Assembly (NCBI RefSeq): GCF_029688845.1
Contig: NZ_JARUKW010000003.1
Span: 186,001-250,000 of the forward strand
Source: Natronococcus sp. A-GB1
GTDB taxonomy: Archaea > Halobacteriota > Halobacteria > Halobacteriales > Natrialbaceae
DNA length: 64,000 nt
Direction of reading: 5' to 3'
The translations under genes were made by a program, and so were the position numbers. Positions 37,863 through 63,511 of the stretch are shown one piece after another; within the stretch, counting starts at the first letter, position 1; the number at the start of each line of letters is the position of its first letter. The notes under the pieces were generated by a model. That model worked only from the letters and a program-made list of their open reading frames with translations, did not search any database and was not told the origin of the DNA.

Positions 37863-38141
37863 GTGAGCATCGACCGCGACCGCCTCGAGCGACGACTGCG
37901 CGAGGAGTTCGGCGGCTCGAGCGGCGCCGCTAGCGTCGTCGCCCGCCAGGCGACGGACCTCGACGATTCCGGTCGCTACGAGGCCGATACCGGGACCCGA
38001 CTCACGGCCAAAATCGTCGTCGAGGAGCTCGCGGATGCCCCCGACGGCGGCCCGACCGAGCGCTGGAACTGGTGGATCGGCTCGCTCGAGATTGCGTTCG
38101 GCGGCTACGAAGCGTTCGGGATTCGCCGGTACCGGGAGTGA
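37863..38141 (+). CDS. Small haloarchaeal protein, hypothetical
   Basis: A 92-residue protein starting at GTG 37863. Its C-terminal half carries [21 protein letters not shown], a compact aromatic segment. No domain is recognised. It is divergent from S6e and stands alone before the TetR gene. Confidence 0.6.
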
Positions 38142-59484: not shown

Positions 59485-59799
59485 GTGACCTCTCATCGAC
59501 CGACCACGAGCGTGGCCGCGACGGAGGATCGGCGAACGAGTACGGCGGTTGTCGAACTAGTCGCTCGCGTTGACGAGGTCGATCCGATTGCGCTCGAGCC
59601 CCTCTACGACGCGATCGACCCCGACACGCTGGATTCGATCTGCGATACGGACTCGGGGTTCCGGTCGCTGTCGTTCCGGTACGCCGGCTGGCTGGTTACC
59701 GTCGACTCCCGGGGAGATGGGGTCGAAATCGCGCTGTCGGAGCCGGCGTCACTGGACGGCTCGGTCACCGACGCCCCCGACGCCGAGTCCTCGCTGTAG
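59485..59799 (+). CDS. HalOD1 output-domain protein
   Basis: A 104-residue protein starting at GTG 59485 with the HalOD1 pattern VVELVARVDEVDPIALEPLYDAIDPDTLDSI and LSFRYAGWLVTVDSRGDGVEI. The domain is confined to haloarchaea and is a presumed signalling output. The gene stands alone before the tRNA. Confidence 0.88.
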   Translation: MTSHRPTTSVAATEDRRTSTAVVELVARVDEVDPIALEPLYDAIDPDTLDSICDTDSGFRSLSFRYAGWLVTVDSRGDGVEIALSEPASLDGSVTDAPDAESSL

Positions 59800-59869
59800 T
59801 CGGGCTCGAGGGAGCGTTTCGACGCGAAGAGCAACCGTTATACGGCCGGTTTCTGTACTCTGTTACGGA

Positions 59870-59942
59870 GGGCGCGTAGCTCAGTGGACAGAGTTCTTGG
59901 TTCCGGACCAAGATGTCGCGGGTTCAAATCCCGTCGCGCCCG
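59870..59942 (+). tRNA. tRNA-Arg (anticodon CCG)
   Basis: A complete cloverleaf of 73 bases. The acceptor GGGCGCG pairs with CGCGCCC, the anticodon stem CTTGG/CCAAG holds loop TTCCGGA (anticodon CCG, read for codon CGG), and the T arm contains GGTTCAAATCC. The CCA end is not encoded. It marks the border between the chromosome and the AT-richer element that follows. Confidence 0.95.
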
Positions 59943-60154
59943 TCCCACCGCATAATGCTTGGAATCCACACCCCGGCGGAGGGGATGAGGGGTTCCTTTT
60001 AACCATATAGGGTAGTGCGGTGTCTCCATTCCATCCCGATGCGGGTCACGAGTCTCTGCCGTGCCACGATAATAACTGCACACGTCCTAACAGTACTTAA
60101 AGCTCTGCCGGCGAAATTGCCGCGCGCGCCACACCCACACCCGAACGAGCGTGC

Positions 60155-60163
60155 TAGATAAAT
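60155..60163 (+). promoter_or_regulatory. TATA element of the TatA-like gene
   Basis: TAGATAAAT is centred 28 bases before GTG 60187. This spacing is my reason for starting the gene there rather than at GTG 60151. Confidence 0.5.
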
Positions 60164-60186
60164 GTCAACAGACAGTACATTGGGGT

Positions 60187-60399
60187 GTGAAGGCCTACGA
60201 ACTCCTCGGTGCGATTTCTATCGGCGGGCTCGTCGGCGTCGCCGCACTACTCTTCGGCAGCTCGAAGCTACCAAAACTCGCCCGTTCAGTTGGCCAAGCC
60301 AGTGGTGAACTGCAGAAAGGTAAACAGCAAGCGGAACAGGAACTCAACGAAATGCGGAACGATATCAACGACGAAGAAGGAGAACCCGTAGATGGTTAA
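60187..60399 (+). CDS. TatA-like protein
   Basis: A 70-residue protein. Residues 4-23 are one membrane helix, then the TatA hinge FGSSKLPKLARSVGQ and an amphipathic helix with ELQKGKQQAEQEL, followed by an acidic tail. This is the order in TatA, which forms the pore of the twin-arginine export system. It lacks the usual polar N-terminal residues before the helix. It is carried by the element rather than by a tat operon. Confidence 0.75.
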   Translation: MKAYELLGAISIGGLVGVAALLFGSSKLPKLARSVGQASGELQKGKQQAEQELNEMRNDINDEEGEPVDG

Positions 60400-60680
60400 G
60401 CCTCGAAATCAATCAGCAACTTCTGATCATCAAACACACTAGGCGTCAACACATCAAACCCCACCTCATCCCGCAAAAACGAGACTGCGTGCCAAGTCGC
60501 ACTTTTGGGTGCTAACAACCGGCCTTCAGGCAACTTCCGGAAACAGTACTCACAGAGATTGTCTAACTGGTTCGGTTCTGTCTTGACCACGACTTCCCGA
60601 GGATTCTCATCCATACGCGTCCTGTAATACAGGTACGGATCACGTTCTTCACCCTCAGCGGAATCAGCAACCTTGCTCAT
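60396..60680 (-). CDS. Element protein, hypothetical (third of the SWIM operon)
   Basis: A 94-residue protein with a CEYCFRKLP knuckle. Its start overlaps the end of the previous gene by four bases (ATGA), and its stop overlaps the end of the TatA-like gene on the other strand. No family is recognised. Confidence 0.65.
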   Translation of the reverse strand: MSKVADSAEGEERDPYLYYRTRMDENPREVVVKTEPNQLDNLCEYCFRKLPEGRLLAPKSATWHAVSFLRDEVGFDVLTPSVFDDQKLLIDFEA

Positions 60681-61021
60681 CCCTCATCACCCGCTGACGC
60701 GGAAGACAACCTGGACTCTGGGAACCCGTAGACTCGTACGCCGTGATCTTCTAACTCACCTTCGTCGTGCCATTCAACGATTTCGTTGATATCCCAATCA
60801 GCTAACGATCGCTTGACATCTTCCAGATACGCCGCCTCTACGACTTCCTCATCCTCACCATAGGCGCGGTTTCGGGTTGCGATGGTGATGTCGTTATCAT
60901 CAGGCGGTGTTTCCCAGATCACATACTCGTTCGCTGGCACACCAATGGCGCCGAGGAAGACGAGGTAATCCGACGAGTCAGACTCATCATCAACGGCGAG
61001 ATCACCAGTCTCCAAACTCAC
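60677..61021 (-). CDS. Element protein, hypothetical (second of the SWIM operon)
   Basis: A 114-residue acidic protein (MSLETGDLAVDDESDSSDYL) with mixed alpha/beta segments such as YLVFLGAIGVPANEYVIW. It overlaps the SWIM gene and the third gene by four bases each, so the three are translationally coupled. Function unknown. Confidence 0.65.
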   Translation of the reverse strand: MSLETGDLAVDDESDSSDYLVFLGAIGVPANEYVIWETPPDDNDITIATRNRAYGEDEEVVEAAYLEDVKRSLADWDINEIVEWHDEGELEDHGVRVYGFPESRLSSASAGDEG

Positions 61022-61263
61022 GATGAATCACCCACCATCGGGCGGAGACGCAATCCAAGCTGCTGCTGCACGGCGCGAATATGCTTACAAAGTGCGTTTC
61101 TATATTCAAAATCTTCACAGCCGCACCGCCAATCATCGTCAGCGATGCGGTCTACAACGTGATCTCCATCATTGATACTCCACGCGTCATTGTCGCCAAT
61201 CCTCTCGACATTGTTGATGTCGCGGACGGCGCGTATGTCGCGAACGTAATCATTTGCTCTCAT
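61018..61263 (-). CDS. SWIM zinc-finger protein
   Basis: An 81-residue protein with one SWIM motif CGC-x9-CKH (CGCEDFEYRNALCKH). ATG 61263 (MRANDYVRDIRAV) is preferred to 61398, which would add a non-conserved hydrophobic lead. SWIM fingers bind DNA or proteins and are frequent on haloarchaeal mobile DNA. It is the first gene of a coupled three-gene operon. Confidence 0.75.
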   Translation of the reverse strand: MRANDYVRDIRAVRDINNVERIGDNDAWSINDGDHVVDRIADDDWRCGCEDFEYRNALCKHIRAVQQQLGLRLRPMVGDSS

Positions 61264-61391
61264 CAACTCTGCAACTAACGCTAAGGTAGTTATGATTAAT
61301 AACCTATCGTCTGGGAAGGTTGTCGGTCGAAAGCGTTTTAGCACGAATAGAAGTATGAAATCACCCGATTCGTTCCCTTCAACCAAGCAAC

Positions 61392-61415
61392 TTATCAATA
61401 GATAGTGCTAACTAT
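61392..61415 (+). promoter_or_regulatory. Promoter with operator-like repeat for the winged-helix gene
   Basis: TTATCAAT (61392-61399) is centred 29 bases before ATG 61425. An inverted repeat ATAGT-GCTA-ACTAT (61402-61415) lies between it and the start, well placed for self-repression. Confidence 0.5.
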
Positions 61416-61424
61416 ACGTAGGTG

Positions 61425-61730
61425 ATGGAAGACAACCAAGTATCGCCAAAAGCACGCGAAACAGAACAGATCCTAGCACGCGAAGGACGCGCAACGCGGC
61501 AAATGGTCGCAAACGAACTCAACGTTTCAGGCACGCGAGCCACTCAGCTCCTCAAAGAACTAATCCGTGACAGCCGAGTACGACGGATAGACCACGGATT
61601 GTACGAGCACGAGTACTACAGCCACGAAGCACCTGATGATCTGGAACGACTACGCCAATTCCGCCAGTCGGAAGAGCAGATCTTCGAAGCGATCAGAAAA
61701 TACGACGACGCGTCGGGTGGTGATGACTGA
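61425..61730 (+). CDS. Winged-helix regulator of the element
   Basis: A 101-residue protein. A helix-turn-helix at residues 14-45 (EQILAREGRATRQMVANELNVSGTRATQLLKELI) and a wing with VRRIDHGLYEHEYY give a MarR/ArsR-size regulator. ATG 61425 is used; a GTG precedes it directly. Its end overlaps the start of the frameshifted gene by eight bases. Confidence 0.75.
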   Translation: MEDNQVSPKARETEQILAREGRATRQMVANELNVSGTRATQLLKELIRDSRVRRIDHGLYEHEYYSHEAPDDLERLRQFRQSEEQIFEAIRKYDDASGGDD

Positions 61731-62488: not shown

Positions 62489-63511
62489 TTAGTGACGTTC
62501 TTCGTCACCAAAGTATTGCAGCGCATTCTGATACTCTCGTCTCGCTCGTTCTCCGACGTTGGTCACCATCTCCCACTCGTCGCGGTCACGCACCACCGCC
62601 CACGCGTCCTCGTCCGCAATCCGCCATACGTCCGCCGCCGACAGGAACTCCCATGGCACGAACGGCCACTCACCCAATTCATCCTCTGACTCACCCCGCG
62701 CCTCGGTGACAACTGGGCCGTCACGCTTGGCGTGATATCGCACCACTGCGTCCAACCATATCACACGCCTAAGCGACTGTGTCCGAATCCCGTCTACACC
62801 CTCTTTGGCGCGACGCCAATACTTCTCTGCATACCCCCAGCCGTACTCGACATCCTTGACGGGCAACAGCGGGTCACTGTTGGTTTCCGGTGTCAGAGTG
62901 ATACTCCAACTCCCTCCTCGGTATACGGCCCGTATCTCTCCCTCCCTACTGTTCCACTCGTCGGGTAGAAAGTACAAGCTGAGTGGGATGTGAACGGATA
63001 GATTGCCGCGGTACTGCTTCCCGGCAACCCCTGCAATTGGGTCAGTCTGCGTCCGGTCAGATGAGAGGCAAACCGGGTCACCCTCGCTTACGCCATCAAA
63101 GAAGTCGCCATGGCCACCTAACCTTCTGGTCGGTTCCACCTCGATTTCCCTGATCTCCACCGTGCGCTCCCCCGGCATGCACGGATCCCCGTTACCGGCT
63201 TCAAGCGGGTAGACCGCCTGCACCGCCGTCCAACAGTCTTCACGGCCGGATTGTCGGGTGTGGAGCGATGGCCGGTCTGTCCACGGTTTCTCCGCCTCCT
63301 CGTTGGTGTCGGTTGCAAGAAAGGAAATAGACAATTCTTCCTCTTTCGAATAGTCTGAATCAGTTTCATTGAAAACGACTTGCTCGACATCGCCGTGCCA
63401 CTTGTTGTCCTCTGCGTCACAGACGTGGATAGTCGCGTTCTCAGAGTGTCGCAGGAGATCGACCATCCCATCCGGATTGTCCGTCGAGTTAAATCGCATA
63501 TGGGAACACAT
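62489..63511 (-). CDS. 340-residue element protein, hypothetical
   Basis: A 340-residue soluble protein, possibly starting at ATG 63499 (MRFNSTDNPD). It has an N-terminal beta-rich half, including ATIHVCDAEDNKWHGDVEQVVF and IREIEVEPTRRLGG. The C-terminal helical half carries WGYAEKYWRRAKEG and ADVWRIADEDAWAVV. No known domain is recognised. Its intact length contrasts with the decayed genes around it. A strong palindrome sits in its promoter. Confidence 0.7.
   Translation of the reverse strand: MCSHMRFNSTDNPDGMVDLLRHSENATIHVCDAEDNKWHGDVEQVVFNETDSDYSKEEELSISFLATDTNEEAEKPWTDRPSLHTRQSGREDCWTAVQAVYPLEAGNGDPCMPGERTVEIREIEVEPTRRLGGHGDFFDGVSEGDPVCLSSDRTQTDPIAGVAGKQYRGNLSVHIPLSLYFLPDEWNSREGEIRAVYRGGSWSITLTPETNSDPLLPVKDVEYGWGYAEKYWRRAKEGVDGIRTQSLRRVIWLDAVVRYHAKRDGPVVTEARGESEDELGEWPFVPWEFLSAADVWRIADEDAWAVVRDRDEWEMVTNVGERARREYQNALQYFGDEERH

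What the first reader, a model, noticed from the sequence alone, without database searches (positions are those of the whole stretch)
60187..60399. TatA-like protein encoded on a mobile element
The helix-hinge-amphipathic order and FGSSKLPKLARSVG are clear TatA marks, yet there is no tatC. Haloarchaea depend on Tat export. A mobile TatA could change export, or puncture membranes as a toxin-like pore in a defence or competition role.
Basis: partly seen in the sequence, partly recalled or inferred. Interest (0 to 1): 0.6.

Follow-up and report, generated by a model that had tools for sequence, protein, structure and literature searches.

The report
Chimeric TatA on a provirus-derived element
A small gene on an integrated mobile element of a haloarchaeon is a TatA protein-export gene of a virus-like element whose membrane anchor was swapped, by a recombination accident, for that of a signal-peptidase-like gene, so it probably no longer works as a normal TatA.

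Summary
In detail: 60187-60399 (+) encodes a 70-aa TatA_B_E protein (Pfam E 1.2e-7, above cut-off) on an integrated element. attL is the 3' end of tRNA-Arg(CCG); attR with a tyrosine integrase is on contig C5; three congeners have empty sites. The interpretation needs changing. Congener G007 has the related 35-kb element at the same tRNA, with betapleolipovirus-type morphogenesis genes, a complete TatA and, about 9.6 kb away, a separate signal-peptidase-like (S26-like) gene. The window gene joins the two: start and membrane helix from the S26-like gene, hinge and amphipathic helix from TatA. The junction is in frame, in a 16/18-bp homeologous stretch. The viral NTPase and intact S26-like gene are absent here. 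The chimera breaks a geometry kept by all 63 other haloarchaeal TatAs compared: 12 uncharged residues between the conserved Glu and hinge Phe become 18. It also misses NCBIfam's tatAE cut-off. Most likely it is an impaired derivative of a provirus-borne TatA, whose intact form probably helps export virion proteins. The absence of tatC is uninformative, since the host's own tatA is also unlinked from tatC. A toxin-pore role has no support. The intact proviral TatA of G007 is the more interesting object.

The parts
59870..59942 (+). tRNA-Arg (CCG), integration target
   Evidence: ARAGORN; same tRNA beside the element of G007
59912..59942 (+). attL core; exact copy (attR) at G000:C5:9982-10012
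   Evidence: empty sites in G001, G003, G004
60138..60186 (+). Leader stretch shared with the S26-like gene of G007; TATA-like TAGATAAAT at 60155-60163, 28 nt before GTG 60187 (promoter role inferred)
   Evidence: 84% identity over 60138-60255; reading
60187..60399 (+). Chimeric TatA, 70 aa
60187..60255 (+). N-terminal part (codons 1-23, membrane helix) derived from the S26-like gene
60238..60255 (+). Recombination junction, 18-bp stretch shared by both parent genes (16/18 identical in G007)
60256..60399 (+). TatA hinge, amphipathic helix and tail
60396..60680 (-). 94-aa neighbour of unknown function, conserved in G007
   Evidence: 68% identity
60677..61021 (-). 114-aa neighbour of unknown function, conserved in G007
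61018..61398 (-). SWIM zinc-finger protein, conserved in G007
   Evidence: Pfam SWIM 4.2e-6
61422..61730 (+). Winged-helix-like regulator, conserved in G007 (homology ends near 61664)
   Evidence: weak Pfam HTH matches

Best explanation
The gene is a chimera formed on an integrated, provirus-derived element. The ancestral element, as still seen in congener G007, carries a complete TatA and, about 9.6 kb upstream on the same strand, an S26 signal-peptidase-like gene; between them lies a betapleolipovirus-type morphogenesis module. Shown: the promoter-side sequence, start codon and membrane helix of the S26-like gene are joined in frame to the hinge, amphipathic helix and tail of TatA, at an 18-bp stretch in which the two parent genes agree at 16 positions. 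Shown: the viral NTPase and the intact S26-like gene are absent from this genome. Shown: the helix before the hinge has 18 uncharged residues instead of 12, so the conserved Glu is 6 residues out of place. Inferred: because TatA function depends on a very short helix and on that polar residue, the chimera is impaired as a TatA and is probably a relic. Inferred: the intact proviral TatA supplements the host Tat pore during export of virion envelope proteins, such as the spike-like protein with its twin-arginine-like signal.
For: blastn places window 60138-60255 on the start of the S26-like gene and 60238-61664 on the TatA cassette of G007, with the tRNA flank 59500-60112 also matching (base level). 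The junction is the best match between the two G007 genes, 16/18 and in the same codon phase. The S26-like gene and viral NTPase are absent from this genome, so two co-existing intact parents were not merged by the assembler. The leader aligns with the N-terminal anchor of other haloarchaeal S26 proteins, which makes the window the derived state. Helix length is 12 in 63/63 other distinct TatA sequences and 18 here. NCBIfam tatAE: 41.2 bits, below the 53.9 cut-off, while the G007 TatA (56.6) and host TatA (62.6) pass. Tree: window + G007 TatA 99/92. Betapleolipovirus character of G007: NTPase homologous to HHPV3, Harhisp1 and His2, p4 homologue and same gene order. Short-helix and glutamate requirement: PMC12609122 (plant Tha4) and PMC13186574.
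Against: The reading frame is open and the TatA part keeps low dN/dS (0.23), although that includes time before the fusion. Pfam still accepts it. A promoter-like stretch and start are kept, so it may be expressed. Function cannot be judged from sequence alone. Only one relative (G007) shows the unfused state, and a gap between C23 and C5 leaves part of the element unread.
Confidence: 0.68

Rival explanations
1. The chimera is a working accessory TatA: the new helix gives a different membrane fit or partner, and the element uses it to tune the host Tat pathway.
For: Open frame, kept promoter-like stretch, the near-invariant hinge and amphipathic residues kept, low dN/dS in the TatA part. The host's second chromosomal TatA locus is a truncated relic, so a replacement role is conceivable.
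Against: Glu-to-hinge spacing of 18 against 12 in all others; below the NCBIfam cut-off; a full-length relative was found in none of 60 related genomes.
Confidence: 0.2
2. One reading: the protein perforates membranes as a toxin-like agent in defence or competition.
For: A membrane helix plus an amphipathic helix could disturb membranes.
Against: Same architecture as ordinary TatA; a direct homologue sits in a virus-like element as a normal TatA; no immunity gene or export signal seen; the neighbours are conserved in G007 with no defence family found.
Confidence: 0.04
3. The junction is an assembly error that joined two separate genes.
For: Draft assembly of 57 contigs; the contig ends about 4.7 kb further on; the junction has an 18-bp shared stretch.
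Against: The intact S26-like gene and the viral NTPase are nowhere else in the assembly; 18 bp is short for assembler confusion.
Confidence: 0.05
4. The window state is ancestral, and G007 gained its S26-like gene by fusing to the leader of a TatA.
For: Only two elements are known, so polarity rests on outgroups.
Against: The leader aligns with the N-terminus of other S26 proteins, and all 63 other TatAs have the canonical N-terminus that the G007 TatA also has.
Confidence: 0.03

Closest known systems
Proviral TatA of the same-genus genome G007 (L037:13829-14020, -)
   Same: Hinge, amphipathic helix and tail (65% identity overall, 82% in the TatA part), neighbours 94 aa, 114 aa, SWIM and winged helix, same tRNA site
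   Different: Canonical TatA N-terminus with a 12-residue helix; passes the NCBIfam tatAE cut-off
Housekeeping haloarchaeal TatA (host copy G000:C15:32512-32652)
   Same: FGxxK(I/L)PKLARS hinge and amphipathic helix
   Different: Different clade, 12-residue helix, chromosomal
Haloarchaeal S26 signal-peptidase family (G007 copy L038:7565-8221, -)
   Same: Gives the chimera its start and membrane helix
   Different: No peptidase domain remains in the window
Betapleolipovirus HHPV3 and Harhisp1
   Same: NTPase, p4 homologue and gene order shared with the G007 element
   Different: No TatA or S26 gene annotated in them; the module is missing from the part of the window's element that could be read

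Membership tests
TatA_B_E (Pfam PF02416) | Profile match above the curated cut-off | tested here: met
   31.2 bits against 21
TatA/TatE subfamily (NCBIfam TIGR01411) | Profile match above the curated cut-off | tested here: not met
   41.2 bits against 53.9; G007 TatA 56.6 and host TatA 62.6 pass
TatA | Short membrane helix with conserved Glu 12 residues before the hinge Phe | tested here: not met
   18 residues here; 12 in 63/63 others
TatA | FG hinge followed by an amphipathic helix | tested here: met
TatA | Supports Tat export together with TatC | not testable with these tools
   needs complementation
Integrated mobile element | att direct repeat, integrase and empty site in relatives | tested here: met
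Betapleolipovirus-like provirus (G007 element) | Homologous NTPase and syntenic morphogenesis genes | tested here: met
   NTPase E about 1e-38, p4 homologue E 9e-6, same order; the spike-like protein has no blastp match to HHPV3 but matches phrog_2231
Betapleolipovirus-like provirus (window element) | Morphogenesis module present | tested here: not met
   NTPase absent from the genome; only the two ends are shared with G007; an unread gap between C23 and C5 remains
Membrane-pore toxin | Toxicity to cells | not testable with these tools
   needs expression

The most novel reading that the evidence does not exclude
Some pleolipovirus-like proviruses carry their own TatA to push Tat-signal-bearing envelope proteins through the host translocon, and in the window such a viral TatA has been rebuilt with a foreign, longer helix into a variant that changes the host Tat pore, for example by lowering or redirecting export after the structural genes were lost.
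Probability: 0.12. Interest if true: 0.7.

Novelty: new variant of a known kind. Interest (0 to 1): 0.36.

Why it matters
It is a clear, base-level case of a chimeric gene born by short-homology recombination on an integrated archaeal element, and a natural test of how long TatA's membrane helix may be. It also points to a pleolipovirus-like provirus that carries a complete TatA, which suggests that enveloped archaeal viruses may supplement host export; no earlier report of this was found in the searches made here.

Tried and rejected
IMG/VR scans with the G007 TatA, the viral NTPase and the 94-aa neighbour gave no relative; a GTDB contig scan with the two mobile TatAs gave none; the phage collection has no match to the chimera or the spike-like protein. 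Plasmid TatAs exist in other haloarchaea; the two examined lie among ordinary metabolic or regulatory genes. Literature: no paper found that joins TatA with pleolipoviruses or phage-encoded TatA; a paper on Tat hydrophobic mismatch (PMC9207671) is not held. Considered and rejected: a start at GTG 60151, because the codons just before 60187 are poorly conserved against G007 and the TATA-like box fits a leaderless start at 60187. Considered and dropped: a two-enzyme viral export kit, because the catalytic SGSM box of the S26 family seems to be missing in the G007 protein. The AlphaFold model adds little: two helices, 3-26 and 28-64, mean pLDDT 70.5. The order-wide TatA search has a truncated hit list, so it cannot by itself exclude further chimeras.

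Full report
Observation. The ORF at 60187-60399 is real and scores as TatA_B_E in Pfam, 31.2 bits against a cut-off of 21. It begins 245 bp after tRNA-Arg(CCG). The window is G000:C23:186001-250000 and the contig ends 926 bp after it. The genome also has a housekeeping TatA on C15, a TatA relic on C1, and tatC genes on C12.

The element. The 31-bp 3' end of the tRNA (59912-59942) is repeated exactly at C5:9982-10012. Next to it on C5 lies a tyrosine integrase (Pfam Phage_integrase). The DNA beyond this attR aligns directly after the tRNA in G003, G001 and G004, which are empty sites. The element therefore consists of the C23 end, a gap, and C5:1-10012, at least 15 kb. The genus is probably Natronococcus, because congener G008 has a contig of exactly the length of the Natronococcus sp. 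AD-5 plasmid NZ_CP132295.

The relative in G007. The same tRNA in congener G007 holds a 35.1-kb element with a 33-bp att repeat. It carries an NTPase homologous to those of the pleolipoviruses HHPV3, Harhisp1 and His2, a homologue of their p4, and the gene order spike-like protein, p4, p5-like protein, NTPase. The spike-like protein matches phrog_2231 and has a twin-arginine-like N-terminus RRRQMMKAMAATATAAA, although the Pfam TAT_signal match is below its cut-off. The element also has a D5-type primase, a complete TatA, and a 218-aa protein related to haloarchaeal S26 signal peptidases (the family name rests on motif reading, since Pfam and NCBIfam give no match).

The chimera. Against G007 the window falls into three pieces in the same order: 59500-60112 on the tRNA flank (82%), 60138-60255 on the start of the S26-like gene (84%), and 60238-61664 on the TatA cassette (75%). 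The last two overlap by 18 bp at 60238-60255. In G007 the two genes match there at 16 of 18 positions in the same codon phase, the best such match between them. The window gene thus has codons 1-23 from the S26-like gene, codons 18-23 being shared, and the rest from TatA. The S26-like gene and the viral NTPase are absent from this genome. The leader aligns with the N-terminal anchor of other S26 proteins and every other TatA has its own N-terminus, so the window state is derived. Either a deletion or an exchange between two elements would give this; the data do not separate them. A second difference is a 575-bp stretch with a type IV pilin-like gene between the tRNA flank and the S26-like gene in G007, also absent here.

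Consequences for the protein. In all 63 other distinct TatA sequences compared, the uncharged stretch before the hinge Phe is 12 residues; a conserved Glu precedes it. Here it is 18, with four Gly. NCBIfam tatAE is not reached (41.2 against 53.9), while the G007 and host TatA pass. The hinge and amphipathic helix are intact. TatA-type proteins depend on a very short helix (about 15 residues in bacteria, about 12 in plant Tha4) and on the polar residue in it (PMC12609122; PMC13186574). Impaired function is therefore likely but inferred. The TatA part has dN/dS of 0.23 against G007, the leader 0.54; the first value includes time before fusion and so does not prove present selection.

Placement. 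With the leader masked, the window and G007 TatAs group at 99/92, apart from the clade that holds the host's housekeeping TatA (98/98). Only 51 columns are available, so deeper placement is unsure. The 94-aa neighbour is found only in G000 and G007, plus one marginal hit, among 392 genomes of the order. Recurrence therefore rests on two genomes.

Function. For the intact proviral TatA the likely role is to supplement the host Tat pore during export of envelope proteins. This is inference from its place in the element and the RR motif of the spike-like protein; HHPV3's own spike begins MTRARSVLLAALIV, without such a motif. For the chimera, loss of normal TatA function is the most likely outcome. 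Absence of nearby tatC says nothing: this host's own tatA and tatC are on different contigs, and those of Natrialba magadii have distant locus tags (PMC3403918).

Noticed in passing
L003:1490-1566 (G000:C1, about 38028-38093): Truncated TatA relic (QPLIILFIAVLLFGSTKLP then a stop) at a chromosomal locus syntenic with the genus's second TatA clade, which is intact in G001, G002, G004, G006 and G008.
   Followed up: partly
G007:C1:2185408-2220505 (L119, L037, L038): A 35-kb betapleolipovirus-like provirus that carries a complete TatA, an S26-like protein and a type IV pilin-like gene next to the tRNA.
   Followed up: partly
L038:7565-8221 (-): S26-like protein in which the family's catalytic SGSM box appears to be replaced; it may be an inactive signal-peptidase homologue.
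   Followed up: partly
L045:9690-10019, L040:8983-9270, L046:9572-9853: A further TatA clade (FGAQKIPKLARS), one copy on the 1.02-Mb replicon of G008, grouped at 99/98 in the tree.
   Followed up: no
window 62489-63511 (-); L120:4128-5108, L120:5484-7181, L120:2444-3052: Cargo genes of the window's element without a Pfam family; the 202-aa one on C5 resembles a PIN-type protein by eye only.
   Followed up: no
L099 (G008:C1, about 2996608): The flank after the same tRNA-Arg in G008 does not match the empty-site sequence, so another insertion or rearrangement may occupy the site there.
   Followed up: no
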